Shown piece by piece: positions 2,056 to 31,212 of a stretch of DNA of 42,534 bases (positions are counted from its first letter, which is position 1; each line of letters starts with the position of its first letter). Location: positions 1 to 42,534 of the forward strand of contig JAQXIQ010000083.1 in the NCBI GenBank assembly GCA_029007865.1, written 5' to 3'. Under the pieces are notes generated by a model. That model worked only from the letters and a program-made list of their open reading frames with translations. It ran no database searches and had not been told where the DNA came from. The stretch is from Bacillota bacterium (lineage in GTDB: Bacteria > Bacillota > Clostridia > Christensenellales > QALW01). Made by a program: the position numbers and the translations under genes.

Positions 2056-2188
2056 GTTAAACACCTTGCCTTTGCGCGCAGCAAAGGGCTCCTTTCCTTT
2101 TTTGTCCCGATGGGGCGGTACCGCTCAAATACTCCCGCGGCCGCCCTTATATCTTATATTTCCGTATGCCTTGTATAATAACGCTGCG

Positions 2189-3859: not shown

Positions 3860-3985
3860 GTATTATGTATTAGCTCCTTAATAATAGCATTTGTTTTTCT
3901 GCTTTGTAACCGCAGTATCATTATACATGATAATACATAATTAAAAAACTGTAAATACCAAATTGCCTGAATTGCTGCCCGGAGC

Positions 3986-4014
3986 TTGAAAAAAGCTTCT
4001 TTTTGAGTTATAAT
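3986..4014 (+). promoter_or_regulatory. Sigma-A-type promoter for the hydrolase gene
   Basis: TTGAAA, 17 bases, then TATAAT, ending 55 bp before the ATG at 4070. The spacer contains an AAAGCTTCTTT inverted repeat. Several A+T-rich TATAAT-like boxes for the divergent acyl-CoA synthetase gene lie in 3900-3960 (for example 3920-3925 on the minus strand), none with a clear -35. Confidence 0.6.
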
Positions 4015-4069
4015 GCTATAAAATAATGGCGGAATATGCCGCCATACCGTACTGCTCGGGGAGAATCTT

Positions 4070-5065: not shown

Positions 5066-5174
5066 CGCCCCGCCGTATGCCTGTTGACTTTTGCCGCTCC
5101 GGCATATATAATCTATGTATCGGGCCGTATGTCGCGGCGTTTTGCCGCCATAGCCCGCAGAAAGGTTGCCTGCA

Positions 5175-5627: not shown

Positions 5628-5664
5628 GCTTCAGGCGCCGCATTGCCATAGGTTATCGCTTTTT

Positions 5665-5687
5665 CAGCCCTTAACCGGGCTTTTTTT
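5665..5687 (+). terminator. Intrinsic terminator after the lipoprotein gene
   Basis: AGCCC, loop TTAACC, GGGCT, followed by a run of Ts on the plus strand, 38 bp after the stop codon. Confidence 0.75.
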
Positions 5688-5760
5688 ATGCGCCGCGCTC
5701 CAAAAGCACACAGCGTACACCGGCATCAAAGCGTATGCCGCCCTAAATCCGTTATAAGCA

Positions 5761-5782
5761 AAGGCTCGCTTCCGCGAGCCTT
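5761..5782 (-). terminator. Probable terminator of the oxoamine synthase gene
   Basis: A perfect nine-pair hairpin AAGGCTCGC / GCGAGCCTT with a four-base loop, 67 bp beyond the minus-strand stop at 5849. The tail on the minus strand is only moderately T-rich (TTTGCTTAT), so efficiency is uncertain. Confidence 0.5.
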
Positions 5783-5848
5783 TAGCCTTTAAGCAATAAT
5801 ACCGTTTACCTCAGCATTTTCTTCCGCCGGAACACCGGAAAAGCAAAA

Positions 5849-7033
5849 TCACCGTTCCGCCGGGTACAAATGATTAAGCACAAGGTCAAACTTCTCCAGG
5901 GAGAAATCCAGCTGCTCCTTTGTATGGGTAGCGGTATAGCTGGTTCTGAGTATGCTCTCCCCCTCCGGTACCGCCGGCGACACCACGGGATTGACATAAA
6001 CTCCGTTCTCCAGCAGCGCCCGTACCACCAGGAAGGTGCGCTCGTTGGTGTATGTACGCACGGGGATTATGGGCGCCATGCTGTCTCCGTGCGGTATCCC
6101 CAGGCGCGTAAATCCGGCGCGCATATAGTCGCCGTTTTCCCTCACCCTGCGCACACGCTCCGGCTCCGTGCGCAGTATCCGGAGCGCTTCCAGCACCGCA
6201 GCGGCATTAGCCGGCGGTATGGATGCGGAAAAGATATACGGCCTGGAGACATGCATGCAGTAATCCACCACTCTTGCCTTTGTGGCCATAAAGCCGCCCA
6301 GCGACGCAAAGCTCTTGGAAAAGGTGCCCATGACTATATCCACCTCATCCTCCAGCCCGAAATGCTCTGCGGTGCCTCTGCCGTGCTCCCCCATGACTCC
6401 TATGCCGTGCGAGTCGTCCACCATTATTCTGGCTCCGTATTTGCGGGCAAGACGCACAATGGACGGAAGATCGGCAAGATCTCCCTCCATGGAAAACACG
6501 CCGTCCACCACAATCAGCTTGCCTTTGTCGCCGCACATTTTAAGCTGCTCCTCCAGCTGGTCCATGTCATTGTGGTCGTACTTCATAAGTCTGGCAAAGG
6601 AAAGCCTTGCCGCGTCCACCAGGGAAGCATGATTTGCGCGGTCAAACAGTATGCAGTCGTGACGGCCGCAAAGCGCGCTTATTATTCCCAGGTTCGTCTG
6701 GAAGCCGGTAGACCAGGTCATCACCGCCTCCTTGCCCATAAAATCCGCAAGCTCTCTCTCCAGGCGGGTGTGCAGCGTAAGGGTGCCGTTGAGAAAGCGC
6801 GAACCGCTGCAGCCCGTTCCGAACTCGTCCAGCGCCCGCTTTGCGGCGTCTATTACCCTCTGGTCGCTGGTAAGCCCCAGATAATTGTTGCTGCCCAGCA
6901 TAATGGTGCGCCTGCCGTGCATGATGACCTCGGAATGCTGTTTCCCCTCTATCTGGTGAAAATACGGATAGAGTCCTGCCTCTCTGGCCGCGTCCGCGGC
7001 AGAGGGCTGCATACACTTTTCAAAAATGTCCAT
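5849..7033 (-). CDS. Alpha-oxoamine synthase, serine-palmitoyltransferase-like
   Basis: A 394-residue PLP enzyme of the family that condenses an amino acid with an acyl-CoA (serine palmitoyltransferase, 8-amino-7-oxononanoate synthase, glycine C-acetyltransferase). Visible features: LGSNNYLGLT (46-55), GCSGSRFLNGTLTLH (74-88), His135 in DRANHASLVD stacking on PLP, the cofactor-binding segment MVDDSHGIGVMGEHGRG (204-220), and the Schiff-base Lys240 in GTFSKSFASLGGF. The N-terminal AGLYPYFHQIEGKQ and the block SFARLMKYDHNDMDQLE look most like Bacteroides-type serine palmitoyltransferases as I recall them. No biotin genes or threonine dehydrogenase lie nearby. I chose the ATG at 7033, with GGAGG six bases upstream; a start 23 codons earlier has no such site. 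The exact acyl-CoA and amino acid remain inference. Confidence 0.85.
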   Translation of the reverse strand: MDIFEKCMQPSAADAAREAGLYPYFHQIEGKQHSEVIMHGRRTIMLGSNNYLGLTSDQRVIDAAKRALDEFGTGCSGSRFLNGTLTLHTRLERELADFMGKEAVMTWSTGFQTNLGIISALCGRHDCILFDRANHASLVDAARLSFARLMKYDHNDMDQLEEQLKMCGDKGKLIVVDGVFSMEGDLADLPSIVRLARKYGARIMVDDSHGIGVMGEHGRGTAEHFGLEDEVDIVMGTFSKSFASLGGFMATKARVVDYCMHVSRPYIFSASIPPANAAAVLEALRILRTEPERVRRVRENGDYMRAGFTRLGIPHGDSMAPIIPVRTYTNERTFLVVRALLENGVYVNPVVSPAVPEGESILRTSYTATHTKEQLDFSLEKFDLVLNHLYPAER

Positions 7034-7073
7034 ACTGTCCTCCATTATATAATGTATAAATAAATGCACTGTA

Positions 7074-7102
7074 ATTATATCATTTTTTATTCCGCAGCAC
7101 AA
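7074..7102 (-). promoter_or_regulatory. Promoter for the oxoamine synthase gene
   Basis: On the minus strand TTGTGC, 17 bases, TATAAT, with the -10 about 40 bp upstream of the ATG at 7033. The rest of the 403-bp divergent gap to atpB (7103-7345) is A+T-rich; I could not fix the atp promoter in it. Confidence 0.5.
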
Positions 7103-7345
7103 CCCCAGAATTCGCTGATTCTCTCTCAGGCGCTGCTTTTCCGCACCTCAGGCTCCGTAACCCCGCCGCGTAGCGCATAAAAACAGGATTTCGGTATCTT
7201 CCGTTTCTCTTTGGCAATGATAAAGGCATAAATAGTTTATTTTATTACAAAAACACTTTACTAAATTAAAAAACAGCAAACGGCGGACATATTGGGTTTG
7301 TTGAGGAGATAATCGCCGCATTTAAGCTAAAACCTTAAAAAAACT

Positions 7346-7380
7346 CCGATATTCGTCCAAAATCGGCTGTTTGTTTTTTT
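7346..7380 (+). terminator. Terminator-like hairpin in the atp operon leader
   Basis: CCGATATT / AAAATCGG (one mismatch) around a five-base loop, followed by CTGTTTG and seven Ts. No plus-strand gene lies upstream (the preceding gene is divergent), so a terminator here would act inside the leader of the atp operon, 57 bp before atpB. Confidence 0.45.
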
Positions 7381-7436
7381 GATTTGCGGTGATAAGATAA
7401 AGAGTCGAAATATATCCTTTGAGGAGGTGAGAGCTT

Positions 7437-8168
7437 GTGGAAATAGATGTTTTCCCAAAGGATATCACTCTGGAATTATTCGGCCGCTCCTTTGAAGTGC
7501 GCGAAACCTACCTGGGCGCGCTGGTGCTTCTGGCCTTTATACTCATTCTTGCCCTGATATTTCGGTTCATTATTTTTCCGCGCTTTACTCTGGAAGCCAG
7601 AAAAATGAAAAGTACGCAGATGCTGTTTGAGTATATGATAGACATGCTGGACAAATTCACCAAGGGTGCGGTAGGCAGCCTGGGTGAGCGCCTGTCTCCC
7701 TACATTCTGGCGGTAGGCGCCTATATAATAGGCAGCGGCGCTCTGGAGCTGATAGGTATGCGTTCCCCGCTGTCCGACCTTACCACCACTCTGTCCTTCG
7801 GTCTTTCCACATTCGTTCTTATCAACTATTACGCTCTTCGCGAAAAGGGCATTATCGGCAGGCTGAAGTTTTACGGCAAGCCCAAGCCCTATGTGGCGCC
7901 GTTTAAGCTCATAAGCGACCTTTCCACCCCGATAAGTCTGTCCTGCAGGCTTTTCGGCAACATGCTGGTTGGGTACATTGTAATGGATCTGCTGTACCTG
8001 GTGCTGATGAACTGGACCAAGGTTGCTTATATGTGGGTGATTCCGGATATAATCGCCGCAATAGTGCCGGGCGTGCTGAGTCTGTACTTTGTGCTGTTTC
8101 ATGTGGCCGTACAATTCTATGTGTTTTCCACCCTGTCCCTGACCTTTATAGGCGAGGCTACAGAGTAA
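7437..8168 (+). CDS. atpB: F1Fo ATP synthase subunit a
   Basis: The 243-residue membrane subunit that forms the ion half-channels against the c-ring. There are five or six hydrophobic helices. The conserved helix with the essential arginine reads SLSCRLFGNMLVGYIV, and the final helix ends HVAVQFYVFSTLSLTFIGEA. GTG start with a strong GAGGAGGTG ribosome site nine bases upstream. It opens the operon atpBEFHAGDC; no atpI-like gene precedes it. Confidence 0.96.
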   Translation: MEIDVFPKDITLELFGRSFEVRETYLGALVLLAFILILALIFRFIIFPRFTLEARKMKSTQMLFEYMIDMLDKFTKGAVGSLGERLSPYILAVGAYIIGSGALELIGMRSPLSDLTTTLSFGLSTFVLINYYALREKGIIGRLKFYGKPKPYVAPFKLISDLSTPISLSCRLFGNMLVGYIVMDLLYLVLMNWTKVAYMWVIPDIIAAIVPGVLSLYFVLFHVAVQFYVFSTLSLTFIGEATE

Positions 8169-8207
8169 CTTAACTGCAAATACAACTGACTAACGGAGGA
8201 ATTAAAA

Positions 8208-8423
8208 ATGGATCTGACTGCAATAGGAGCCGCTATAGCAATTTTCACCGGTTTGGGCTGCGGACTTGGAATGGGGCTTGCCACCGGCAAGGCCTGTGAA
8301 GCCGTTGCCCGCCAGCCCGAAGCTTCCGGAAAAATCCAGACCGTATTCATGCTGGGTCTGGTGTTTACCGAAAGTATCGCCATTTACGGCCTTCTGGTAG
8401 CAATTCTTATTCTGTTTGTATAA
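8208..8423 (+). CDS. atpE: F1Fo ATP synthase subunit c
   Basis: A 71-residue hairpin of two membrane helices joined by the polar loop ARQPEA (34-39) that contacts the rotor. The ion-carrying carboxylate is Glu55 in VFTESIAIY. Helix 1 has the glycine-rich packing motif GLGCGLGMGLATGKA. Around the ion site Ser56 and Tyr60 match residues of Na+-type rings, but the position equivalent to the Na+-binding glutamine of Ilyobacter is Met22 and that of Val63 is Phe53, so the site is mixed. GGAGG lies seven bases before the ATG. Confidence 0.97.
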   Translation: MDLTAIGAAIAIFTGLGCGLGMGLATGKACEAVARQPEASGKIQTVFMLGLVFTESIAIYGLLVAILILFV

Positions 8424-8458
8424 TTATAAGCGGAAAATAACTAAGGGGATTTCTTATT

Positions 8459-8953
8459 ATGGAGCAACTGCTTGACCCTTTATATGTAGGGCTGCACATA
8501 TTGAACCTGATAGCAATGGTTATCATACTCAGGCTGCTGGTATATAAGCCCATGAAAAAGTTCATGGCTAAGCGCCGCGAAGCCGTCGCGGAGGAGACCC
8601 GTGCCGCCGACGAAGCCCTGGCCGCTGCGGAAAACACCAACCTTCTGATCCAGCAGGAGAAAAAAGACCTTGAGCAAAAGACCAGGAACGACTGCTACAA
8701 CATTCTGACCCAGGCGCATTCCAAAGCCGAGGAGATAATCGCCGCCGCTCATCAGGACGCCGAGCAGATAACCGCCGAGGCTCGCAAACAGGCTCAGGAA
8801 ACCGTGGACGCCGCCGCCGAGCAGCAGCGTCAGGCCGCCGCCGTTCTGGCGGTGGATATCGCCTCTGCGGTGCTGCCCAAAAAGCTGACCGCTCAGGAGC
8901 AGCAGGACCTGCTGGAAGCCAGCCTCGAGGAGGCAAAGCGGCATGAACTTTGA
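8459..8953 (+). CDS. atpF: F1Fo ATP synthase subunit b
   Basis: A 164-residue peripheral stalk subunit. One N-terminal membrane helix (about residues 8-28) is followed by a long charged, alanine-rich coiled coil (about 35-150), normal for the family. The C-terminal part ADIASAVLPKKLTAQEQQDLL is the usual delta-contact end. Length is ordinary, so it has not absorbed the missing part of the short delta subunit. The last 11 bases overlap atpH. Confidence 0.95.
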   Translation: MEQLLDPLYVGLHILNLIAMVIILRLLVYKPMKKFMAKRREAVAEETRAADEALAAAENTNLLIQQEKKDLEQKTRNDCYNILTQAHSKAEEIIAAAHQDAEQITAEARKQAQETVDAAAEQQRQAAAVLAVDIASAVLPKKLTAQEQQDLLEASLEEAKRHEL

Positions 8954-9167
8954 GCTTATAGTTTATACCGCGGTGGCTCTGGAGCCGCAGCAGCAGCAAA
9001 GGCTGCAGCTTGAGCTGCAGGAAAAATACCAGACCGAAGGCGTAATTTTTTTGGTGGACCCTTCGCTTATAGGCGGCATGAAGCTGGTATTCCGCGACCG
9101 CATAGAGGATTACTCCCTGCAGGCCAAGCTTCGCGCCATGAAAAAGCATCTTACAAGCGAGGAATAG
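8943..9167 (+). CDS. atpH: F1Fo ATP synthase delta subunit, C-terminal domain only
   Basis: Only 74 residues, against about 175-180 for the family. The sequence VYTAVALEPQQQQRLQLELQ followed by LVDPSLIGGMKLVFRDRIED and SLQAKLRAMKKHL matches the C-terminal domain of delta, which binds subunit b. The N-terminal six-helix bundle, which in known enzymes caps the F1 head by binding alpha N-termini, is absent. The start is well supported: GAGGAGG lies eight to nine bases upstream of the ATG and the gene overlaps atpF by 11 bp, leaving no room for the missing part. Neighbouring subunits are intact. Either the protein is a natural minimal delta or its head-binding role is taken by another protein. 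Confidence 0.85.
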   Translation: MNFELIVYTAVALEPQQQQRLQLELQEKYQTEGVIFLVDPSLIGGMKLVFRDRIEDYSLQAKLRAMKKHLTSEE

Positions 9168-9219
9168 CCGCTTGCGGCGCATATCGGGTTAAAACCAAAC
9201 CTAAAAGGAACGAATTGTA

Positions 9220-10719
9220 ATGACAACACAGGATCTGACCGCCGCCCTCCGGGAGCGGCTGAGCCAATTCAAAAGCGAACCGGCCGTAAACGCCATAGGC
9301 AGCGTTATTTCCTCCGGAGACGGCATAGCCGAGGTCTCCGATATGACCGGCGTTAAAAACGGAGAGCTCATAAGCTTTGCAAGCGGTGCCTTCGGGCTGG
9401 CCATGAATCTTGCGCAGGACAGCGTCGGAGTGGCCGTCTTTTCCGGGCACGCCGACATACGCAGCGGAGAAACCGCAGCCGGCACGGGCCGGATAATGGA
9501 GATGCCCTGCGGCAAAGCAATGCTGGGCCGTGTGGTTAATCCTCTGGGCGCGCCCCTGGACGGCAGAGGGGAGATCAAATGCTCTGCATACCGCCCCATC
9601 GAATGTCCGGCTCCCGGCATAATCGACCGCGGCCCGGTCGCCCGTCCTTTGCAGACCGGAATTCTTTCCATCGACTCCATGATACCCATAGGCCGCGGAC
9701 AGCGTGAGCTCATTATAGGCGACCGCCAGATAGGCAAGACCGCCATCGCGGTGGATACCATCCTTAACCAGAAGGACAAGCAGGTGGTCTGCATATATGT
9801 CGCCATAGGCCAGAAGGCCGGCAAGGTGGCACAGCTGGAGCAGCTTCTGCGCCGGGAAGGTGCCATGGAATATACAACCATAGTATGCGCCACCGCCTCG
9901 GACAACGCCTCCATGCAGTATATCTGCCCGTATTCCGCCTGCGCGCTGGGCGAATACTTTATGTACAACGGCATGGATGCCCTCATAATATACGACGATC
10001 TTTCCAAGCACGCGGTATCCTACCGCACCCTGTCTCTGCTGCTGCGCAGACCGCCGGGCAGAGAGGCATATCCCGGCGACGTATTCTATCTGCATTCCCG
10101 CCTTCTTGAGCGGGCTGCACAGCTTACCCCGGAGCTGGGAGGCGGCTCCCTTACCGCCCTGCCCATCGTGGAAACCATGAGCGGCGATATAAGCGCCTAT
10201 ATCCCCACAAATGTCATAAGCATCACCGACGGTCAGATTTTTCTTGACTCGGAGCAGTTCCGCAGCGGAATGCGTCCGGCAATCAATACCGGCCTTTCGG
10301 TCTCCCGCGTAGGCGGTGCCGCGCAGGGCAAATGTGTGCGCAAATATTCCGGCAGTATGCGCCTGGAGCTGGCACAGTATAAAGAGCTTGTGGTCTTCTC
10401 TCAGTTCGGCAGCGATCTGGATGCCTCCACGGTAGCCTCCCTGAAGCGCGGCGAGCGTCTTACCGAGGCATTGAAGCAGGAACAGTACCTGCACTACACC
10501 TATGCACAGGAATCCCTGCTGCTTTATCTTTTGTCGCAGGATCTGCTCTCCGGCGTGGAGCCCTCCGCTCTGCACGGCTTTTTCCGCCGTTTTTTGGAAC
10601 ACATTTATAAATTCCATCCGGAGGTACCCTACGAAATAGTCCATGAGGATAAAATCAGCGACACCTCAGCGGAAATAATTGCCTCCGCCGTAGCGGAGCT
10701 GACGCAAAGCAATGAGTAA
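9220..10719 (+). CDS. atpA: F1Fo ATP synthase subunit alpha
   Basis: A 499-residue non-catalytic nucleotide-binding subunit of the F1 hexamer. The P-loop is GDRQIGKTAIA; the usual Thr after GDRQ is Ile. The arginine-finger motif is SVSRVGGAAQ, and the DALIIYDDLSKHA Walker B and LLRRPPGREAYPGDVFYLHSRLLERAA stretches are intact. The N-terminal helix TTQDLTAALRERLSQF that normally docks on delta is present although delta lacks its partner domain. AAAGGA lies about 10 bases before the ATG; the last 8 bases overlap atpG. Confidence 0.97.
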   Translation: MTTQDLTAALRERLSQFKSEPAVNAIGSVISSGDGIAEVSDMTGVKNGELISFASGAFGLAMNLAQDSVGVAVFSGHADIRSGETAAGTGRIMEMPCGKAMLGRVVNPLGAPLDGRGEIKCSAYRPIECPAPGIIDRGPVARPLQTGILSIDSMIPIGRGQRELIIGDRQIGKTAIAVDTILNQKDKQVVCIYVAIGQKAGKVAQLEQLLRREGAMEYTTIVCATASDNASMQYICPYSACALGEYFMYNGMDALIIYDDLSKHAVSYRTLSLLLRRPPGREAYPGDVFYLHSRLLERAAQLTPELGGGSLTALPIVETMSGDISAYIPTNVISITDGQIFLDSEQFRSGMRPAINTGLSVSRVGGAAQGKCVRKYSGSMRLELAQYKELVVFSQFGSDLDASTVASLKRGERLTEALKQEQYLHYTYAQESLLLYLLSQDLLSGVEPSALHGFFRRFLEHIYKFHPEVPYEIVHEDKISDTSAEIIASAVAELTQSNE

Positions 10720-19116: not shown

Positions 19117-19192
19117 GGGGGTGTAGCTCAACTGGTAGAGCGCTTGAATGGCATTCAAGAGGTAAGGGGTTCGACCCCCCTCATCTCCACCA
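19117..19192 (+). tRNA. tRNA-Ala, anticodon GGC
   Basis: A 76-nt cloverleaf. The acceptor GGGGGTG pairs with CATCTCC and includes the alanine identity pair G3-U70. The D arm contains AGCTCAACTGGTAGAGC, the anticodon arm is CTTGA-ATGGCAT-TCAAG with anticodon GGC, and the T arm is GGGGTTCGACCCC. CCA is encoded. A consensus promoter stands directly upstream. The 3' end is the left border of the mobile island. Confidence 0.95.
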
Positions 19193-19307: not shown

Positions 19308-19378
19308 ACTATCCGCACATTCGATTTCCGTTATTCCTCCTGCTACAATGATTGCAAAATGAACAGGAGGTTATGCCA

Positions 19379-19756
19379 ATGGAAAGATTTGTCACAGATG
19401 AACGCACAGGGCTGAAGTATGAGCTGGTTGGCGACTATTATCTGATTGCCGGAGATGATGAGCCGGAGGGAGATCCGCTAATCGGGGTATGGGGACAGTG
19501 GCATCTCCGCTATCTCAAGGAGCATCGCCGTGTGCGATATGCCAATCTGCTGACAAATGGCGAATTGAATGCCTATCTTGCGGATATTGACCGGCAGGCA
19601 GAGGAGCTTTTCCTTCGGCTGGTAAAGCAAATGGCAGATGCTGAGGGCATTACGGAAACGCTGAAAGCCAACGACCAAATTGAATGGGTCGGGCGGATAA
19701 ATAATGTCCGCAGCCGAGCATTTGAAATAGTTGAGGCAGATATTATCTATACATAA
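19379..19756 (+). CDS. tnpV: TnpV-like transposon-associated protein
   Basis: A 125-residue protein, no signal or membrane segment. It reads ERFVTDERTGLKYELVGDYY, then IGVWGQWHLRYLKEHRRVRY, and ends with a helical region ILETL/KANDQIEWVGRINN-like typical of TnpV of Tn4451-type elements and of many clostridial integrative elements. Its role in transposition is unknown. AGGAGG stands eight bases before the ATG at 19379, which I prefer over an ATG two codons upstream that is only two bases from it. It is followed directly by an antisense intron fragment, so its original neighbours are gone. Confidence 0.75.
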   Translation: MERFVTDERTGLKYELVGDYYLIAGDDEPEGDPLIGVWGQWHLRYLKEHRRVRYANLLTNGELNAYLADIDRQAEELFLRLVKQMADAEGITETLKANDQIEWVGRINNVRSRAFEIVEADIIYT

Positions 19757-20281: not shown

Positions 20282-23200
20282 TTACATGCGCTCATCCAAA
20301 ATTTGTTCTACGAACTCAATTACATGCTTTCGTTTAAGCAAATCATGGTATTTCTGATTTTTGTAGCTGCGCAAACACGAATAGCAGGAAGAATCTCCCA
20401 CCTCTCCGCCGCAAACGCAGCCTTTCATCATTTTTAAAGTGTGAGTCAGAATGTTATAAAGCGCATTTTCATTATCAAGTCTCTTGGCGTGACCTGCGCC
20501 ACCAGGTGTGTTGTCAAAAACGACAATCGAATAATTGGGTCGTCCATCAACAGGTTCATACTGCAAGCAACCGGAAATGTCATTTTCTTCGATATTCAAA
20601 TAAGAGCAAGCACCTCGAAGAAACCCATACAGAATGGAAAGCCCATGCTCCCAATCTTCGATAACATAATTGTCAAATCTAATTCTAACAACATCGGTAA
20701 GAAAACGATACCCAAGTGAAAAAAGCCGTAGGTGCTCATTTGAACACGGGTAACCACTACTTATTTTGTGCTTCTTTTTCTTTATGCCGATAAATTGATT
20801 TTCATCGACCTCAGAATATCCACAGTTCTCACATACATAAAAGGGGCTTTTATTCAAGACAGCCATTTCATCATTTTGGCTTGATCTGACACTTACGATG
20901 GCGTTACCAATGCTATAAGTGTTTTCTTGAACACTATTGTTGAATCCAACATAAGAGATTTCGCCTCTGTATGTACGCTCCGGTTTTTTGAGCCCCGGTT
21001 TTCGAATCATATTTCCATCTGCAATAAAACCCTGAGCCGGTATCAAAAATACTTTCGGAGATGATGTGAATTTCTTATGACATTGGCAACATTCCGTTAT
21101 ACCATCCTTTCCCGGTTCATCTTCGGCAAATGGCTTGATATTCAAAGTGCGGCACTCATCACACTGAATATAGCTGTACATTTTCCATCCGATTTTTGGT
21201 ATCTTTTTGATGTAACGGCTTGTTATCAGGTTGTTATTTGCAACTATTTGGGAACCAGGAGCATACTCCGAAATAGCCATAGACAGGTCGCGCTGAAGCT
21301 GAAGTCCGTAACCTCTTCCTTTTTTTGCATCGGTAACCGTCATCTCGACCGTATCGACGGGAAAACCGTATTTAGGAAGTACATTTTTTCGCGAAAGGAA
21401 CGAAAGGATATCCTCCCTTTCATATGCGGCGATTCGCTGAATAATACCGTCCACATAGGTCCCTTTTTCTATGCGTTGCTTCTTTACAGCTTCCAACAAG
21501 TCAATTTCATATCGATACATTTGAATTGCCTCAGTTAAAACGCCTTTTTCTCCTATAAGGGATGCTACCCAGCCAAAATGGGCAACATCAAATTTTTCTG
21601 TCAGCACCGCAGGCAAAAATGTGGTCAAATAGTCACGAAGGCTGCTTGGTTCAGAATATAAATAGTTTTTAAGGCACTCAAAACCGTCTTCCCCCATTTC
21701 GTTCTTGCGCAAGAATTGGCCAATCGTCTTGAACAATTCCGGATGAATTTTCCAAAAGAAACTCATAGCAGATGCGTATAGGTGCCGAATTGCGATCTTA
21801 TCGTTTTCAACAACATAATTGGGCGGAGCTATTTTGCCCTTGATCATTTTGGCCGGATCATGAAAATAGGAGAAATCGTGATTGCTTTTGTTGCAAAATG
21901 TCAGTGCGAACGCTGCTGACTGCTTGCTTCGACCTGCTCGTCCGGCTCTTTGGGCGTAATTAGAAGGCATCGGCGGCACATTACGCATGAAGACTGTTTC
22001 CAAGCTACCAACATCAACACCCATTTCAAAGGTGGTAGAACAGCTCAAAATATCGATTTCTTTCTGCTTGAATTTCTTCTGAAACTCATATGCCATATCC
22101 CGGTCAAGTTGGGCAGTGTGTTCCACAATACGAAGATCTCGGATCTCCATATCATTGAATAAGCGGTAGTAATGGTTCTCCTTAAACTCAATTGACGGAT
22201 CAATTGGTATCAGCTCACCATCACATTGGTATGTCGGACAAACATCTTCGATATTATGGCAGGTTAAGCGCCTGCATTTTTTACATATAAACCATGGCTT
22301 GGAATTTGTGATTCTGATTTTTGAGGTGTCTACCTTATATGATGTTCCGCTGTCACGAGCCACTATGCCTCTGAGTACAAAAACCTTGTCCCACAACAGC
22401 TTCAGGAAGTCCGTTGCATCATCTAAAGAAAGCTCAATCCCCTTCTTTTTTGTGATCTTTTGCAGATAATCGACCCGTTTATTAGATAGTCCTGCTTTAG
22501 ATGGAATGAAGGCCTTCTTCCGTTTTCCAGATTCTGAAACGGTATAAGAATACTCCGCTCCGCCATGAGTAAAATCTTCCAAATCGCTTTCGTTTAACGG
22601 AGCATCATATTTTAGAGCTGCATCCGTCATCATTGACGCGGCAAAAATGCTGCAGAGCGAACGGAATTCGTTTTCGTTGATGTGATATTTTTTATAGCTT
22701 CCCGAAACATCGGTCTCAATTCCGATAAGGCCAAAATGCGATAAAGAAGTATTTCCATTGCTGTCCACCAGTTCAGCGAGAATCGCTTTCCACGCCTCTT
22801 TTTGAATGCCAAAATCAGAATCAGCATCAAACGAAGTTCTCCCTTTGATATCGTTTTTTTCAAAAACTGTCTTCAACAGGTCGACAAAAGACGGAACCAT
22901 CAGACCGCCTGATGCCTCCCTCTTTTTGAGTGCTTCTACAATAAGCCTTTTATAGAGAATGTCATTATACGATATGTTCAGATAGCTTGCGTAAAAGGCG
23001 GCAGCCTGACGACTATCGGAGAACGCGATAAACTGCTTTGCTGTTTTCTCTTTGATTATTTCAGTAGAGCCGAAGTCGTCACCAAATTCATCATCGGCAT
23101 CATGTTTCTGAACTGTCATTTTGTAGGAGGGCAATTCCTGGAACAACGCCGTTCCGATAACGCTTGTGGATGCTTCCTGACCACTAAAAAACATTCTAAG

Positions 23201-24949
23201 GACTCCGGCGGTATTTACATTTTCACAATGCAAGCACTTTGTCAATGTATGTCTTTCCGTCGTGAATTTCACACGGTATACCTTTACATAGGATGTTGTG
23301 ATATGCTCGCAGTGCGTCTTCACACCATCCTTGTGAATGGATCCGCAGTATGGGCAAATACGATAGGCCTCGGCCGCTATTCCTTCGTCCTCCAATATGT
23401 GGTCGTTGTCCGTGTCGTTAACACTATCTGCAAGAAGGAATAACTCTTTTGTCGATATGTCGTCAGACATATTGTATTGCTCCAACTTACCATTTTCTAT
23501 TTTACCAACAAGATAAACAGCGGCGCAGAACGAGCATGTAGCTGCTTCAAACACCTTAAAGCTTGTGTTCGTAGCCATATCATATCTATTTGTGCTTCGA
23601 TGAAGCATGACATGACTGTCGGGCGGAAGCGTCACAAACACGCTCTCGGTGGCGCGCAAAAACATATGATATCTGGCATCAAACAGTTTCCCACCATTTT
23701 TCTCAGCCAATGATGCCACGGAAACAAAGTCCGACAATTGTTTCTGTGTCCAGTTCATGCTGTCCGCTACCTGTCTTACTGTTTCTGGAGAGGAAAGCAA
23801 CGAGCGTATTCTCCAATAATTTCGGTCGTGCACGATTAAATCGTACAGCTCGCTTTCAAGTACCCCTTCTTTGGCTTTGCCGATAATTTCCAAGATTTCT
23901 GAATCAGGACAATTCATATCAATTGCATCGGCAATCTTTTCGTAAAACTGAATCGGCAAGGCGGATATATCATGCCTTGTTGATGGGATGATTCGATCAG
24001 CCCTTACGATGTCACTGCTGTCAAACGGTGCGCTGCAGAGCTTTTCTGCAAATTCTGCAACCTGCTTATTATCCTCTTTTCCGCCCAAGGTTGCACTGGT
24101 TAGAATGTAAGTGATTTTTTGATTACCAAGCTTCGCTTTTAGCCTTCTGAAAAGCATGGACACTTCAATTCCCGTTGACCCGCTATATACATGGGCTTCG
24201 TCAAAAACAATAAACTTCCAGTGCGTTGCGAATTCCCCGTCAAAGAATATACTGTCTCTCGGACGTACCATTAGATATTCAAGCATCGCATAGTTTGTGA
24301 TGAGAATGTGTGGAGGACTCGCTATCATTTGATCTCTTGAGATAAACTCATTCTCACACGGTAGGTTCCCGTTATTTAGTGATTTGTAATCTTCAATTGC
24401 ATCGGCATCTTTTTGTTTTGTTTGGCCGGTATAAACACCAAATTTGATCTCCGGATAATTAGACAATAAAGAACGGAGTCTTTCCGTCTGATCGTTAGCA
24501 AGGGCATTCATCGGATAAATAAGTAATGCACGAACACCCGGGCAAAGCGTTCCTGCCTCGGCCTCCGTTGCAAGCTCCCGAAGTATGGGGATGAGAAAGC
24601 TTTCCGTTTTACCCGAACCGGTACCTGTTGAAACGACAAGATTTCTGTTTTCGGTTGCGACCTTTCTTATGGCCTTTTCCTGGTGTAGATACAGAGGTCT
24701 GGTCATGTTCATGTTGATTTTGGAAAAGCTTTTAGGGAGAATCCCTTCTTCTATTAGCTCTGTAATACACTTGCCTTTTTCGAAAGCATCCGTAACTTCA
24801 AGGTAGGGCCCTTTTGCAAATGCATCCTGATTTTCAAGCAGAGCTTCGTATTCTTTTTTATAGGGCTCCCCCATTTTGAATGATGTTTTTAAATATCGAT
24901 AGTATTTTTCCTTAATATGCTTAGATGCAGTAACAGGAGAAAAAGCCAC
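20282..24949 (-). CDS. Large DEAD/DEAH helicase with zinc clusters and DUF1998-like C-terminus (DruE-like)
   Basis: A 1555-residue SF2 ATPase. Near the N-terminus: Q-like LYLHQEKAI (86-94), Walker A STGTGSGKT (107-115), YPMNALANDQ (145-154), DEAH (250-253), SAT (285-287). The second RecA lobe has CSTTFEMGVDVGSLE and AQRAGRAGRSKQ. Between the lobes lie Cys pairs (CSFC, CPYC, CLHC, CKKC) and later CDEC, CCQC and CENC, probably zinc ribbons. The end carries FDNTPGGAGHAKRL and CVCGGEVGDSSCYSCLRSY, the four-cysteine DUF1998/MZB signature shared by MrfA, DrmB and Druantia DruE. It starts with GTG, 16 bp after the upstream 960-aa gene, so the two form an operon. A+T-rich codon use marks it as acquired. 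Size and layout fit DruE best; DISARM or Dpd relatives remain possible. Confidence 0.85.
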   Translation of the reverse strand: MAFSPVTASKHIKEKYYRYLKTSFKMGEPYKKEYEALLENQDAFAKGPYLEVTDAFEKGKCITELIEEGILPKSFSKINMNMTRPLYLHQEKAIRKVATENRNLVVSTGTGSGKTESFLIPILRELATEAEAGTLCPGVRALLIYPMNALANDQTERLRSLLSNYPEIKFGVYTGQTKQKDADAIEDYKSLNNGNLPCENEFISRDQMIASPPHILITNYAMLEYLMVRPRDSIFFDGEFATHWKFIVFDEAHVYSGSTGIEVSMLFRRLKAKLGNQKITYILTSATLGGKEDNKQVAEFAEKLCSAPFDSSDIVRADRIIPSTRHDISALPIQFYEKIADAIDMNCPDSEILEIIGKAKEGVLESELYDLIVHDRNYWRIRSLLSSPETVRQVADSMNWTQKQLSDFVSVASLAEKNGGKLFDARYHMFLRATESVFVTLPPDSHVMLHRSTNRYDMATNTSFKVFEAATCSFCAAVYLVGKIENGKLEQYNMSDDISTKELFLLADSVNDTDNDHILEDEGIAAEAYRICPYCGSIHKDGVKTHCEHITTSYVKVYRVKFTTERHTLTKCLHCENVNTAGVLRMFFSGQEASTSVIGTALFQELPSYKMTVQKHDADDEFGDDFGSTEIIKEKTAKQFIAFSDSRQAAAFYASYLNISYNDILYKRLIVEALKKREASGGLMVPSFVDLLKTVFEKNDIKGRTSFDADSDFGIQKEAWKAILAELVDSNGNTSLSHFGLIGIETDVSGSYKKYHINENEFRSLCSIFAASMMTDAALKYDAPLNESDLEDFTHGGAEYSYTVSESGKRKKAFIPSKAGLSNKRVDYLQKITKKKGIELSLDDATDFLKLLWDKVFVLRGIVARDSGTSYKVDTSKIRITNSKPWFICKKCRRLTCHNIEDVCPTYQCDGELIPIDPSIEFKENHYYRLFNDMEIRDLRIVEHTAQLDRDMAYEFQKKFKQKEIDILSCSTTFEMGVDVGSLETVFMRNVPPMPSNYAQRAGRAGRSKQSAAFALTFCNKSNHDFSYFHDPAKMIKGKIAPPNYVVENDKIAIRHLYASAMSFFWKIHPELFKTIGQFLRKNEMGEDGFECLKNYLYSEPSSLRDYLTTFLPAVLTEKFDVAHFGWVASLIGEKGVLTEAIQMYRYEIDLLEAVKKQRIEKGTYVDGIIQRIAAYEREDILSFLSRKNVLPKYGFPVDTVEMTVTDAKKGRGYGLQLQRDLSMAISEYAPGSQIVANNNLITSRYIKKIPKIGWKMYSYIQCDECRTLNIKPFAEDEPGKDGITECCQCHKKFTSSPKVFLIPAQGFIADGNMIRKPGLKKPERTYRGEISYVGFNNSVQENTYSIGNAIVSVRSSQNDEMAVLNKSPFYVCENCGYSEVDENQFIGIKKKKHKISSGYPCSNEHLRLFSLGYRFLTDVVRIRFDNYVIEDWEHGLSILYGFLRGACSYLNIEENDISGCLQYEPVDGRPNYSIVVFDNTPGGAGHAKRLDNENALYNILTHTLKMMKGCVCGGEVGDSSCYSCLRSYKNQKYHDLLKRKHVIEFVEQILDERM

Positions 24950-24965
24950 GACCTTACCCCTTTCT

Positions 24966-27848
24966 CTATTTAATACGGAAATTGTAATAGTAGCTATCTT
25001 CGTAGAGCACCAAATATCTGTTTTTAGCTTCCGATGAGCTGGTGTTTTCGTCTTCAGACAGCACCAGGATGCCCTCTATTTTGTCGTACATAAATTCAAT
25101 GTACCCATCTTCTTCATCACTCCAAAAATATAGTGTGCCCACTTTCGTATTATTTGGATTTTCAAAAGTGACTTTGACTTGGAGTAGTGTCAATGTATCG
25201 CACGAGAGAACACCAGTAAAGCTATCTATCTCATTGGGGATTGCCTGAATACTTGAAACTGTCACATTTCCCCGGAGGATATATTCCGGTGAAGAAAAAA
25301 TGGATCCTTTCTGCCTACGCTCAGTAACGCTTACAATCTGAATTATTTTACCGCTCAAATCTTTCGTGTTCTTATAATTACATTCTTTAGTGTCAAATAA
25401 CCTATAATCGGGTGCACCAAAATCATCTTCCTCGTCCGCTTCAAAGTATTCAATTCGGTATTTGCCGCTGGTGAATGGAATGCTGAGTTTAAAACCATTC
25501 GCTTTCACTTCAACTTTTTCAGCAATCAGGATACCATCTAAATAAAGATCGGCTACACAATCGGAAAACCCAATAATACTGCTCTTGAACCATAACTTTC
25601 GGTTGGGACGATCTTCAACAATTTGACATTCCGAGTTTGCCAAGAAACAGCGTGTGATAACCCGCAAAAACACGAACGATATCGATTCGAAGTGCAGGCT
25701 CAAGGGTCTGATAATATCCTCAAATCCAAACCACGATAACATCTTTCGCGTGTCGCAGACAAAAAGATGCTTTTCCTTGTTTTTTTCAACTTTTATGCTG
25801 TACTCCGCATCTTCGTTATCATCCGTCATCAGGGGAGGCATATCCAAGCAAACGGTATCATCCGGGAACTTCAGATAAATCATCTTGGGAAATTCCGCGT
25901 GCCATATTTCTTCTGGCTTTTCCGTATGCCAAGCCCCATCGTCAAATTTCCACTTAAAGGCCGGAAGATACACATGCAACGCCAGGTTCTCGTTAGCAGT
26001 CTTATAAGTGAAAGGTAAGTAATCAATATCGGGGTCAATTCTAAACACAAAGCTGTTGTTGGCTATATGCTCAGAGTGCTCATCGCCCAAGATCATGCCG
26101 GCGCCGGAGAATGTGATTTTTCCCTCCTTTTTGTAAATAAAGGGGGCGTCCTCATACTTGTAATCAAATTGATTAATTACTGCAAAAGAATAATCGTTAG
26201 CTTTTCTGGAGTTGGGAATATCTATATTCACATGGAAAATACCATCCGTTTTAATATAGTCGGACAGTTTAAGAATGTAGCCATATTCATCGGTTTTGTC
26301 TTGCGTATTACATTTTACTGCTTTTGCAATATCAAAGCGATATTTTTTCGCATTGATTCTAATCAGTGTTCCTCTCTCTTGAGTAGGTGACATGCGAAAA
26401 TAGATTGATGGAACGGCGGAAAAAACGGGGTATTTTACTCCTTCGCGCATGACATATACACCATTTTTCAGGTTGTTTTTCAAAAGGCCGTCTTCCAGCG
26501 CACTCCCCACCGGCAAAGCTCGTCCATCGGGAAGTCGAATAATATCCCCTTTAATCAGTTCCATACTGTACAGATTCAGCCCGTTTAGATATTCGCAGTT
26601 ATAAACAGCGTCAGAATCTGTATACAAAGCATCCTCTGTATGTGTAAATGCAAACGCATCCCCAATCGGCAGAGCGTCTGTATAATGGATCAACTCCCAA
26701 TTGTTATCAAAGAAACGAATACACGCTGCTCGGATATTGGTAAACTTATGGATTATCTCTGCGTCATTCTTGATAAGTTCAATTCGGATGCTGTCGAAAA
26801 TATTATCAGAAGGAATGTAAATATCGGAAATGATTTGCGTTTTGCAACCGGTTACACAGTTTTCCGGTTCGGCTTCAAGAGTTTTTTCAACATTGGAAAA
26901 GGCAATTTTCCAGTGTAGGTTTGGCAACTCCTCATTTGTTGCTAAGTGAATATACTGCGGCGGCAAGACAAGCTCAAAACGGTTTTGACTTCCATTGTAA
27001 CGCAAATACGGAGCACTGTATCTTTTTTCTCCTCTTTTGGTTAATCCCGCAATAGCTTTCTTTGCTTGATCGAATTTCTTTGATTCGTCAGCCCACCTGC
27101 AAAACAGTTGAGCAATCCGATTCTGTGATGTTCTCGGGAACAGTCCATAAAACAGAGCATTATCCATAAACCGCAGAATTTTGCCAACTCGAATTTTACA
27201 TCCTCTCGTATTGAATGCGACTGCATCAGATGTGTGCTTTTTGATTTTATATGCTCTGGCTGTATTCTCACCGCTCGCCATAGATTGCATCAAATAATCT
27301 CGCATTTCCTTACTATTACTCGTAAGGTCACGCTCTAAGTCTATTTGATAATATGCAAAAACGAAATCAAAGAGGTCGCTCGCATAGTAGTTTGTTATAA
27401 AGCAGTGCAGAAGAATATTGTTCATCATTTCATTCTCTGCTACTTTGTACTTGTTGTATTTTTCGAGTGTTTTATAGAAGCTGCGTCCAATCCATTTCTG
27501 GTATGAACCCGGCAATTCCATGCCAATTTCTCGCTCAACATGGGGCCAAAACCGACCATCATATTTATGAATACCGATTTGAACCAGCGCAACCGCAAAA
27601 ATTGGGCTAGTGATATATCTCTCGGATGTGTTCAGATATTTTCTGCAAATACTGCAAAGATATGCCTTAAGAAGGATATATTCGTCCTCACTTATTACAA
27701 TATCGCCAATATACCGGCATGTTTTGAACTGACGGTTGATCTTTGTATTCAAATGCTTTCGAAGTTTTTTGTCCTGAAGTACTTGAGCGATGTGATTTGT
27801 ATCCATTTCGACATTCTCTCCTAACAACAAGCTTTGTATTCTTTCCAT
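24966..27848 (-). CDS. Large protein of unknown function, partner of the DruE-like helicase (possible DruH analogue)
   Basis: About 960 residues, not assigned to a family. The first 250 or so are mostly helical and include the phrase KYDGRFWPHVEREIGMELPG and, further on, DLFDFVFAYYQIDLERDL. The remaining two thirds look beta-rich, with many aromatic and acidic residues and no recognisable nuclease, methylase, ATPase or membrane motif. An acidic, serine-rich stretch EDENTSSSEAKNR lies near the C-terminus. The start is uncertain: ATG at 27848 or TTG at 27860, neither with a clear ribosome site. The gene is transcribed first, from a promoter near 28.04 kb, and runs 16 bp from the helicase. Gene order and size match druH-druE of Druantia type III; similarity to DruH was not testable here. 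Confidence 0.75.
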   Translation of the reverse strand: MERIQSLLLGENVEMDTNHIAQVLQDKKLRKHLNTKINRQFKTCRYIGDIVISEDEYILLKAYLCSICRKYLNTSERYITSPIFAVALVQIGIHKYDGRFWPHVEREIGMELPGSYQKWIGRSFYKTLEKYNKYKVAENEMMNNILLHCFITNYYASDLFDFVFAYYQIDLERDLTSNSKEMRDYLMQSMASGENTARAYKIKKHTSDAVAFNTRGCKIRVGKILRFMDNALFYGLFPRTSQNRIAQLFCRWADESKKFDQAKKAIAGLTKRGEKRYSAPYLRYNGSQNRFELVLPPQYIHLATNEELPNLHWKIAFSNVEKTLEAEPENCVTGCKTQIISDIYIPSDNIFDSIRIELIKNDAEIIHKFTNIRAACIRFFDNNWELIHYTDALPIGDAFAFTHTEDALYTDSDAVYNCEYLNGLNLYSMELIKGDIIRLPDGRALPVGSALEDGLLKNNLKNGVYVMREGVKYPVFSAVPSIYFRMSPTQERGTLIRINAKKYRFDIAKAVKCNTQDKTDEYGYILKLSDYIKTDGIFHVNIDIPNSRKANDYSFAVINQFDYKYEDAPFIYKKEGKITFSGAGMILGDEHSEHIANNSFVFRIDPDIDYLPFTYKTANENLALHVYLPAFKWKFDDGAWHTEKPEEIWHAEFPKMIYLKFPDDTVCLDMPPLMTDDNEDAEYSIKVEKNKEKHLFVCDTRKMLSWFGFEDIIRPLSLHFESISFVFLRVITRCFLANSECQIVEDRPNRKLWFKSSIIGFSDCVADLYLDGILIAEKVEVKANGFKLSIPFTSGKYRIEYFEADEEDDFGAPDYRLFDTKECNYKNTKDLSGKIIQIVSVTERRQKGSIFSSPEYILRGNVTVSSIQAIPNEIDSFTGVLSCDTLTLLQVKVTFENPNNTKVGTLYFWSDEEDGYIEFMYDKIEGILVLSEDENTSSSEAKNRYLVLYEDSYYYNFRIK

Positions 27849-28039
27849 CGAGTCATTCAAATTGTATCCGTATTGCAGCAGTAAATTAGTAATTCTGCTT
27901 CTGCATAATCAGATATCGCGCTGGTCTTCCCGCAAGGAATATTGTTGAGCATTGTTATGTGGACTTTTTTCGTGTATTAACTGGTTTCGCAAACAACTAT
28001 AGTCGACAGGCACATATTTGCGCTCGATTTTACAAACAC

Positions 28040-28074
28040 ATTATATCACTTTTTGCCAATTATTCAATTGAATA
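28040..28074 (-). promoter_or_regulatory. Promoter of the two-gene helicase operon with an overlapping palindrome
   Basis: On the minus strand TTGAAT, 16 bases, TATAAT (-10 at plus 28040-28045). A perfect 14-bp palindrome TATTCAATTGAATA (28061-28074) covers the -35. The leader would be about 180 nt. The gap 27861-28177 is otherwise A+T-rich and shows no open frame. Confidence 0.6.
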
Positions 28075-28501: not shown

Positions 28502-29371
28502 ATGAAAACCGCCAACTGCTGCTTTCCCACCGGCGTCACCACCTGTGACCACGAGCCGCTGTTCACCGGCGATATGCTGACCTACAACGGCAGGTATTAT
28601 CTCATCAGTGAGGGACATAAGGAGTTTGCGCCGGACAAGATCAAGGACGAGGACTACTATGTGCTGACCCTTGCGGCGATCGCCAAGGAGCTGAAAACGG
28701 AAAATCTCACCGAGGCGCACATTGTGGTTGCCGCCGGTCTGCCCCTGACTTGGACAAGCGTGCAAAAAGCAGATTTTAAGGCGTACCTCTCAAAAAATGC
28801 GGAGGTGGAATTTGTCTACAAGAAGACCGTTTATCACATCTATATCGACGATGTGCGCATCTACCCGCAGGGCTACGCCGCCATTGCAAGCTTTGCCACT
28901 ACGCTGAAAGGCGTTAATTTAATTGCCGACATCGGAAACGGCACAATGAATGTGCTGTATATGATAAACGGCAAGCCGCAGCAGGGCAAAATGTTCACCG
29001 AGAAGTTCGAGACTTACCAGTGTACCCTCAGCGTTCGGGAACAGTTTATGCGGAAAACCAACCGGGAGATCAACGACGCTATCATCGACGAAGTGCTGAT
29101 TACCGGTACGGCAAATATCGCTTCGGCAGACCTGAAAATCATCAAGGGCATTGCCGCCGAGTATGTGCGGGACATTTTCCGCAGGCTCCGTGATCACGGC
29201 TATGATGAAACCACGATGACCTTGTATGTGACCGGTGGCGGCGGCTGCCTTGTGAAGAACTTTTATAAGTTCAGCACCGACCAGGTGAAATTCGTTGAGG
29301 GCATCTGTGCTGCTGCAAAGGGATATGAATATCTGGCCGAGGCGCAGATGAAGGTTGAGGCGAAGGAATGA
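28502..29371 (+). CDS. ParM/StbA-like actin family protein, N-terminally truncated
   Basis: Actin-like ATPase of the kind that segregates plasmids and integrative elements. The 289 residues include TYNGRYYLISEGHKEFAPDK, the nucleotide-site segment LIADIGNGTMNVLYM, and TLYVTGGGGCLVKNFYKF. The frame is open upstream and reads SYGN just before the ATG, which resembles the end of the first ATP-phosphate strand (xDxGYGNxKT) of intact relatives. The first strand itself is missing, so the protein should not bind ATP normally. No ribosome site precedes the ATG. The stop overlaps the start of the ParR-like gene. Confidence 0.7.
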   Translation: MKTANCCFPTGVTTCDHEPLFTGDMLTYNGRYYLISEGHKEFAPDKIKDEDYYVLTLAAIAKELKTENLTEAHIVVAAGLPLTWTSVQKADFKAYLSKNAEVEFVYKKTVYHIYIDDVRIYPQGYAAIASFATTLKGVNLIADIGNGTMNVLYMINGKPQQGKMFTEKFETYQCTLSVREQFMRKTNREINDAIIDEVLITGTANIASADLKIIKGIAAEYVRDIFRRLRDHGYDETTMTLYVTGGGGCLVKNFYKFSTDQVKFVEGICAAAKGYEYLAEAQMKVEAKE

Positions 29372-29973: not shown

Positions 29974-31060
29974 ATGGTGAAAGATGCACGAATTGCCGAA
30001 AAGTGCCTGTCTAACGGCAGCAATCCAGGCCTGGGATTCAAGGTCGATGCCGGGCGGCGGTTCTATGTGGATGAGGAGGAAGCCGCCATTGTCCGTGAGA
30101 TTTATGAGCGCTACGCCAGCGGCGAGACAAAAGCGGAGATCATCCGGAATCTGAAACGGCGCAGGGTCAAGACCTCTCTCGGCAAGGAATTCAGCCCCAA
30201 CAGCCTCAGTCATCTGCTCAGCAACAGGCGTTATATTGGCGTCTATCTTTACAAAGGAAAGGAAACCCCCGGCGGGATGCCTCGCATTCTGGACGATGAC
30301 TTGTTTTACCGGGTGCAATCGATGATGAACAAAAACAAAAATGCGCCGGCCCGAACTCACGGCGAAGGCGAATATCTGCTGACCACAAAGCTGTTCTGCG
30401 AGCAATGCAAGGAAATGATGGTGGGCTACGGCGGCACCAGCAAGACCGGCAGGCAATATCACTACTATATGTGCAAAAATGCCCGCAAGAAAAAGTGCGG
30501 CAAGAAGATAGTCAGCAAGTCCTATATCGAGGACCGCGTGGTCAACGAGTGTCTGAAAATGCTGACCGAGGAGAAGATATGTTTTATTGCTAAGAAAGTG
30601 GCTGAGGAGTGCGCTAAAAGCCCGGATAACCTGACCGCCAAGGCGCTGAAAAAGGCGATCCGCGAGACGGACACGGTCATTGAGAATCTCTGGAAGGCCA
30701 TTGAGCAGGGGCAGGCCGTGGAGATGCTGACGGATCGACTCAATAAGCGTATGACGGAAAAGGCGGAGTTGGAGGTACCGCTCGCCATCGAGGAAAACAA
30801 GAAGATCACGATGACTGAGGCACAGATTCTGGCGTTTCTGAACTATGTCTGCGAAATGCCCGCCGATGATGTGAACAAGCGCCGAGCCATCATCAACATC
30901 TTTGTTCATTCTATCTATCTCTATGACGACCACTTTACCCTCATCATCAACGCCAGCAAAAATCCGCTGAGCGTTAACAACATCCCGCTGGATGATATAG
31001 AATCTGTATTCGAAGGCAGTGGTGGTGCCTCGGAGCGGTGTTCATCCTTGAGCACCCCTG

Positions 31061-31069
31061 CTCCACCAA
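31061..31069. other. Possible attR core
   Basis: CTCCACCAA, identical to 19185-19193 at the tRNA-Ala end, within GAGCACCCCTGCTCCACCAA, which vaguely resembles a tRNA T-arm and acceptor end. Backbone-like sequence resumes after the following terminator. Confidence 0.35.
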
Positions 31070-31078
31070 CAGCAAAAA

Positions 31079-31114
31079 GTCTCTTTTGTATGACGGACAA
31101 AAGAGACTTTTTTT
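31079..31114 (+). terminator. Strong intrinsic terminator at the right island border
   Basis: GTCTCTTTTGT, seven-base loop, ACAAAAGAGAC, seven Ts: an 11-pair perfect stem. Confidence 0.9.
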
Positions 31115-31118
31115 GTGC

Positions 31119-31212
31119 GATGCGTTCCTTACGGAACGTGATGTGCACTGCATGCGTGATGCGCTCCTTCGGTGCGCGAAGCGGCTTCGCAGTGAAATGC
31201 CTGCGGGCGTGA
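31119..31212. repeat. Array of short hairpins separated by TGATG/TGAAA
   Basis: Four successive stem-loops: CGTTCC/GGAACG (31123-31138), a TGCACTGCATGC unit, GCGCTCC/GGTGCGC (one mismatch), and GCGAAGC/GCTTCGC. They are separated by TGATG or similar spacers and end in TGAAATGCC. The hairpin next to the tRNA (about 19228-19253) has a related core, GGCTTCGCCGTGAAG. No coding sense. Similar hairpin-plus-TGAAGT arrays are, as I recall, scattered in Ruminococcaceae genomes. Confidence 0.5.

What the first reader, a model, noticed from the sequence alone, without database searches (positions are those of the whole stretch)
20282..27860. Two-gene defence-like operon: about 960-aa unknown protein plus 1555-aa DUF1998-type helicase
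Seen: two A+T-rich genes 16 bp apart, with their own promoter, inside a degraded island at a tRNA. The second has full SF2 helicase motifs, at least seven Cys pairs and a C-terminal CVCGG...SCYSCLRSY signature. Known: DUF1998 helicases mark DISARM (DrmB), Dpd and Druantia (DruE); Druantia type III is just druH-druE. Inference: this is a Druantia-III-like or new two-gene anti-phage system. The helicase is shorter than DruE as I recall it, and the partner shows no recognisable enzyme motif, so it may be a new subtype with a new effector or sensor.
Basis: partly seen in the sequence, partly recalled or inferred. Interest (0 to 1): 0.85.

Follow-up and report, generated by a model that had tools for sequence, protein, structure and literature searches.

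The report
Druantia-III-like pair, unrecognised Ig-array partner
A gut Clostridia genome carries a two-gene module, very probably an anti-phage defence related to Druantia III, in which a nuclease-less DNA helicase is paired with a large, fast-evolving, probably phage-sensing protein that current defence databases do not recognise.

Summary
Two intact A+T-rich genes lie 16 bp apart on the minus strand: a 964-aa protein (24966-27860) and a 1555-aa SF2/MZB (DUF1998) helicase (20282-24949). The helicase scores on PADLOC DruE models (566 bits), far above MrfA, DISARM or Dpd models. It ends directly after the MZB domain and lacks the 358-384 C-terminal residues (PLD nuclease domains) of seven of eight Druantia III DruE compared. 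The partner hits no Pfam, PADLOC or NCBIfam family. It belongs to a large family encoded immediately upstream of this helicase clade. In the same 299 genomes of the phylum, 22 carry the partner, 28 the helicase and 19 both (2.1 expected, p 2e-20). AlphaFold gives an N-terminal helical module plus a tandem Ig-like beta-sandwich array. The conserved N-terminal core aligns colinearly, weakly but beyond 200 shuffles, with the DruH stretch (residues 63-137) essential for Druantia III. Best reading: a Druantia-III-like antiphage system with a DruH-like sensor and a nuclease-free DruE-type helicase. Bell et al. 2025 already noted a 'Druantia Type III-like' helicase branch that usually lacks nucleases; in the held text I found no description of the partner. 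New variant of a known kind. Antiphage activity is untested.

The parts
24966..27860 (-). Partner (DruH-like sensor candidate), 964 aa; TTG start at 27860 or ATG at 27848
   Evidence: Intact ORF; no Pfam/PADLOC/NCBIfam hit; homologues upstream of the same helicase clade
27051..27803 (-). N-terminal all-helical module of the partner (about aa 20-270), the most conserved part; conserved core about aa 50-160 with W105, N148, I149, H152
   Evidence: AlphaFold2 pLDDT 82, pTM 0.81; no PDB fold match, best E 0.68; colinear profile match to DruH N-terminus
24969..27008 (-). Tandem Ig-like beta-sandwich array of the partner (about aa 285-964, some 6-7 domains)
   Evidence: AlphaFold2 model, whole-protein mean pLDDT 75.6; Foldseek matches to Ig/Fn3 arrays, E 4e-6 to 1e-3
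20282..24949 (-). DruE-type SF2 helicase with MZB/DUF1998, 1555 aa, GTG start, no C-terminal nuclease
   Evidence: PADLOC DruE1 566 bits, DruE3 512 bits; Pfam DEAD, Helicase_C, MZB; ends 29 aa after the MZB Cys signature
24050..24697 (-). First helicase lobe (aa 85-300): Walker A 109-115, DEAH 250-253, SAT 285-287
20372..20623 (-). MZB (MrfA Zn-binding / DUF1998) domain, aa 1443-1526
   Evidence: Pfam PF09369, E 1.7e-10
28040..28067 (-). Candidate promoter TTGAAT-16-TATAAT with extended -10, about 180 nt upstream of the partner
   Evidence: 10 of 12 consensus match; region not enriched over shuffles
19117..19192 (+). tRNA-Ala(GGC) at the island edge
   Evidence: ARAGORN
19352..19756 (+). TnpV-like transposon protein
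   Evidence: 54% identity to annotated TnpV proteins
28502..29371 (+). ParM/StbA-like plasmid segregation protein
   Evidence: 42-49% identity to plasmid ParM/StbA proteins
29974..31212 (+). Large serine recombinase lacking its catalytic N-terminal domain
   Evidence: ORF sequence; similarity to recombinase family proteins

Best explanation
A Druantia-III-like antiphage operon. The upstream protein is a DruH-like infection sensor: its Ig-like array is proposed to bind a phage protein made late in infection (as DruH and its known triggers, tail or baseplate proteins, suggest), and its N-terminal helical module is proposed to carry the on/off switch to the helicase. The downstream protein is a DruE-type helicase that would load on 3' single-stranded ends of replicating phage DNA and block or unwind it. 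Unlike E. coli DruE it carries no nuclease, so cutting must come from the partner, from host nucleases (in a sister lineage, from a third-gene NERD nuclease), or is not needed. Shown here: helicase family, missing nuclease, strict pairing, fold class of the partner. Inferred: sensing, DNA target, antiphage outcome.
For: DruE-type helicase: PADLOC DruE1 566 bits, DruE3 512, against DrmA 77 and DpdJ 75; Druantia III DruE (six PDB entries) is the best solved-structure match by sequence, E 1.3e-74, with MrfA (6znp) at 1.5e-13. Conserved pairing: every partner homologue from the first searches with enough contig has the helicase directly downstream; 19 of 22 partner genomes also have the helicase, p 1.9e-20. 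The partner diverges faster than the helicase (22-34% against 39-54% identity over the same loci), as reported for DruH against DruE (PMC13192584). Fold: helical N-terminus then Ig-like array, matching the DruH layout (helical start, Ig-like from residue 257). N-terminal profile match colinear over about 100 columns, P 1.8e-4 to 0.006, 0 of 200 column shuffles as high, unrelated helicase profile scores 15.8 against 24.2; it covers DruH residues 63-137, whose mutation abolishes defence. A nuclease-less 1667-aa DruE with DruH defends M. smegmatis (PMC13316683). Mobile-island setting.
Against: Partner not recognised by any DruH model (window protein at E<=1; four relatives at E<=10), and BLAST clustering keeps the two families apart. 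Whole-length profile comparison is not significant, and a rebuilt N-terminal alignment gave only P 0.02, so homology to DruH is likely but unproven. The partner model is beta-rich to its end and shows no counterpart of the helical DruH C-terminal domain that holds the ATP/dimer site. No enzymatic output is identified. E. coli DruE needs its PLD nuclease for stand-alone defence. No experiment on this clade was found.
Confidence: 0.62

Rival explanations
1. The partner is not a DruH homologue but an independent Ig-array sensor family that took up a DruE-type helicase; the system works like Druantia III without being a member of it.
For: No DruH HMM hit; separate BLAST component; whole-length hhalign not significant; the partner lacks a DruH-type helical C-terminus in the model; the helicases with this partner form one side of a branch apart from the DruH-linked DruE clade.
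Against: Colinear N-terminal profile match over the functionally essential DruH surface, none of 200 shuffles as high; same gene order, similar size and helical-plus-Ig layout.
Confidence: 0.25
2. Decayed three-gene system: the ancestral operon was partner, helicase and NERD nuclease, and the window's lineage lost the nuclease and is non-functional or depends on host nucleases.
For: NERD gene directly downstream (gap -3 to 7 nt) in L008, L020, L022 and L081, with a related gene in L009, two of which branch early.
Against: Window genes are intact. Relatives L006, L007, L014, L018, L062 and others with the two-gene form also have full-length helicases, so the two-gene form has persisted over deep divergence.
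Confidence: 0.07
3. DNA-repair or housekeeping helicase operon of the MrfA/YprA kind.
For: MZB domain shared with MrfA; SftH, a YprA-family helicase, can replace DruE in M. smegmatis.
Against: DruE models and DruE structures score far above MrfA; patchy presence (28 of 299 genomes); fast-evolving partner; low-GC mobile island.
Confidence: 0.05

Closest known systems
Druantia type III (DruH-DruE)
   Same: Two genes, large unknown-type sensor then DruE-type MZB helicase; helical then Ig-like layout of the sensor; sensor diverges faster than helicase; mobile islands
   Different: DruH not detected by HMM; [quoted passage not shown] partner Ig array runs to the C-terminus; canonical DruH not found in the phylum sample searched (0 of 199 by sequence, 0 of 101 by one DruH model)
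'Druantia Type III-like' YprA branch (Bell et al. 2025, PMC12458937)
   Same: Phylogenetically distinct DruE branch described as most often without nuclease, sometimes Vsr or PLD; this clade is mostly nuclease-free, with extra tails in L008/L020/L022/L081
   Different: The text held does not describe the partner gene; whether these exact sequences are in their tree could not be checked
M. smegmatis DruH-DruE (PMC13316683)
   Same: Nuclease-less 1667-aa DruE with an adjacent sensor gene, shown to defend
   Different: Sensor is a recognised DruH
PADLOC candidate model C3a139 ('HKD+Snf2')
   Same: Matches coiled-coil members of the partner family (L071, L073, L076)
   Different: Does not recognise the window's partner; unnamed and uncharacterised
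TALON (Bell et al. 2025)
   Same: YprA helicase with a NERD nuclease, as in the sister lineage
   Different: No TPR-CSD or TBP genes were noticed; window has no NERD gene

Membership tests
Druantia (any type) | DruE-type SF2 helicase with MZB/DUF1998 | tested here: met
   PADLOC DruE1/2/3/4 models 356-566 bits, far above other families; Pfam DEAD, Helicase_C, MZB
Druantia type III | DruH partner (STY4851/ECs_5259 family) | tested here: inconclusive
   No DruH HMM hit; N-terminal profile match P 1.8e-4 to 0.02, 0/200 shuffles; whole-length not significant
Druantia type III | Two-gene operon, sensor upstream of helicase | tested here: met
   Window and relatives
Druantia type III | C-terminal PLD nuclease domains in DruE | tested here: not met
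   0 residues beyond the window helicase end against 358-384 in seven of eight DruE3; Azotobacter DruE3 also lacks them
Druantia type III | DruH helical C-terminal domain with ATP/dimer site | tested here: inconclusive
   Partner model is beta-rich to the end; last 130 residues of lower confidence; no direct superposition possible
Druantia type III | Protection against phages | not testable with these tools
   Needs plaque assays
MrfA/YprA repair helicases | Best similarity to MrfA and an adjacent mrfB exonuclease | tested here: not met
   DruE structures E 1e-74, MrfA 1e-13; the neighbouring ORFs do not resemble an exonuclease gene
DISARM | Separate drmA and drmB genes | tested here: not met
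   One fused helicase-MZB ORF; DrmA only 77 bits
Dpd | DpdJ helicase with other dpd genes | tested here: not met
   DpdJ model 75 bits against DruE 566; neighbouring ORFs resemble mobile-element genes

The most novel reading that the evidence does not exclude
A widespread, unnamed group of DruE-helicase systems, here seen in Bacillota and one Melainabacteria-type genome, that is not canonical Druantia III. It would be defined by a modular Ig-array sensor family with swappable extras (coiled coil with a hydrophobic hairpin, RNA polymerase alpha-CTD/HHH tail, N-terminal extensions) and by a helicase that carries no nuclease, so that defence depends on helicase action alone or on a separate, optional nuclease gene.
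Probability: 0.4. Interest if true: 0.65.

Novelty: new variant of a known kind. Interest (0 to 1): 0.5.

Why it matters
About 9% of sampled genomes in this phylum carry the helicase and most of these carry the partner, yet the two-gene form would not be called as a complete system from the PADLOC models used here, because none recognises the window's sensor. If the reading is right, DruH-type sensing is much older and more varied than the proteobacterial families suggest, and natural nuclease-free systems offer a direct test of whether the helicase itself stops phage replication.

Tried and rejected
The first genome scan with the single window protein found nothing; the alignment-based scan worked. 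Viral-contig scans with partner, DruH and helicase found no relatives, as did phage and plasmid searches with the partner. A DruH structure prediction for direct superposition was not made: DruH loci came from annotated records, which the tool does not accept, and the solved DruH (9TUD) did not appear among the Foldseek matches (library up to April 2026). The N-terminal module gave no PDB fold match. One N-terminal alignment was built on wrong motif starts and is disregarded; the first covered some rows only partly. HKD and Walker A motif scans of the partners were negative. An MrfA-type repair reading was considered and rejected. The empty integration site was not established: related genomes do not keep the flanking genes together. 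The ArmC outgroup has a very long branch, so the root of the helicase tree is unsure.

Full report
OBSERVATION. The two genes are present as described. The partner is 24966-27860 minus (964 aa) and the helicase 20282-24949 minus (1555 aa), 16 nt apart, both without interruption. The block has 41% G+C against 54% upstream. It lies between a tRNA-Ala and the trkH/trkA genes. A TnpV-like gene stands on one side; a ParM/StbA-like gene and a serine recombinase without its catalytic N-terminus stand on the other. The promoter claim is only a candidate site.

HELICASE. PADLOC DruE models score 356-566 bits, the next family below 100. Pfam gives DEAD, Helicase_C and MZB. The closest solved structures by sequence are those of Druantia III DruE (9tu7 and relatives, E 1e-74); MrfA is far behind. 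All SF2 motifs checked are intact, with eight CxxC pairs. In an alignment of 37 helicases the window protein ends with the MZB domain. Seven of eight canonical Druantia III DruE run 358-384 residues further, two helicases linked to druA genes 89-98, and four sister helicases (L008, L020, L022, L081) 126-150. I read the latter tails as Vsr-like from sequence resemblance and from the Bell et al. description; this was not tested. The Azotobacter DruE3 beside a recognised DruH also lacks the tail, so loss of the nuclease happens inside Druantia III as well. In the tree, the 25 helicases of this clade form one side of a branch (support 82), apart from the DruH-linked clade (100).

PARTNER. It has no hit in Pfam, PADLOC or NCBIfam. 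Relatives found by genome and contig searches stand directly upstream of the helicase wherever the contig allows. Starting instead from the helicase in 299 genomes of the phylum, most fetched loci with a readable upstream region again show a large upstream protein of 930-1660 aa; L065 has only a 464-aa remnant, and L068 has no such gene in the stretch fetched (its partner-like gene lies on another contig). The partners collected join one BLAST-connected family, separate from DruH. An independent profile search for the partner in the same 299 genomes found 22 positives, of which 19 are helicase-positive (2.06 expected, p 1.9e-20). The three exceptions are an apparently orphan copy (L096), a degraded copy at a contig end (L097) and a locus with a helicase C-terminal remnant (L098). 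Partner identity is 22-34% where helicase identity is 39-54%, the pattern expected of a sensor under arms-race pressure and reported for DruH against DruE.

STRUCTURE. AlphaFold2 (11-row alignment, mean pLDDT 75.6) gives helices to about residue 270 and beta-sandwiches from 285 to the end. Foldseek matches Ig and Fn3 arrays in the PDB and virion or Ig-domain proteins in the viral library; local scores are significant but global TM-scores are low, as expected for flexible arrays. The helical module modelled alone is confident (pLDDT 82, pTM 0.81) and matches no solved fold in the library. DruH is described as helical at its N-terminus with Ig-like domains from residue 257.

LINK TO DruH. Profile comparison of the N-terminal modules gives one colinear alignment spanning [D/E]E..L, the conserved W and the HG.[IV]P / EGGLP motif. 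P was 1.8e-4 with a first alignment in which some rows were only partly covered, 0.006 with a corrected one and 0.02 with a smaller one against full-length DruH. None of 200 column shuffles reached the score, and an unrelated helicase profile scored 15.8 against 24.2. Matched pairs include partner W105 with DruH W88, and N148/I149/H152 with T131/L132/E135. The stretch coincides with DruH residues 63-137, where W88A, T131A/L132A and G136A/G137A abolish defence (PMC13192584). I take homology as likely (about 70%) but not proven.

MECHANISM. By analogy with E. coli DruH-DruE (PMC13192584: DruH likely senses late structural proteins; DruE loads on 3' single-stranded ends and forms assemblies) and with M. 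smegmatis DruH-DruE (PMC13316683: nuclease-less DruE, trigger is a minor tail protein, blocks phage DNA circularisation and replication), the Ig array most likely binds a late phage protein, the N-terminal module passes the signal on, and the helicase acts on replicating phage DNA. The missing nuclease is the main departure: E. coli DruE needs its PLD site for stand-alone defence. A sister lineage may solve this with a third gene directly downstream encoding a NERD-type protein with a D...ExK motif; the window and its nearest relatives do not have it.

NOVELTY. Bell et al. (PMC12458937) already list a 'Druantia Type III-like' helicase branch that most often has no nuclease, so the helicase side is known. 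The partner family was not found described in the papers held, and PADLOC knows only some distant members as an unnamed candidate, C3a139. I rate this a new variant of a known kind, with a fair chance that it deserves its own type.

Noticed in passing
L067, L070, L071, L072, L076, L077, L078 (partner genes): Long partners carry an SMC-like coiled coil between the N-terminal module and the Ig part; in L067 and L077 it holds a hydrophobic hairpin that looks membrane-spanning.
   Followed up: partly
L062:5944-9018, L063:4107-7565: Partner C-terminus fused to RNA polymerase alpha-CTD / HHH-like domains, Pfam E down to 1.6e-28.
   Followed up: no
L008, L020, L022, L081, L009: Third gene for a NERD-type nuclease protein directly downstream of the helicase.
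   Followed up: partly
L101 (G746:C159), 1866-7656: A partner-family gene without the helicase but next to a gene whose start looks Hsp70-like: possible use of the same sensor module in another system.
   Followed up: no
L096 (G720:C11), 7204-10566: Orphan partner of 1120 aa among genes that look like housekeeping ones, no helicase nearby.
   Followed up: no
L018 (DVIU01000191.1): Close relative of the operon in Candidatus Scatousia, from memory a Melainabacteria-type genome outside Bacillota: suggests transfer between phyla.
   Followed up: no
L029:12349-17466 (Azotobacter chroococcum plasmid): DruE3 next to a recognised DruH but lacking the PLD tail.
   Followed up: no
L063:8755-9971: Transposase-like ORFs interrupt the helicase gene of this relative.
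   Followed up: no
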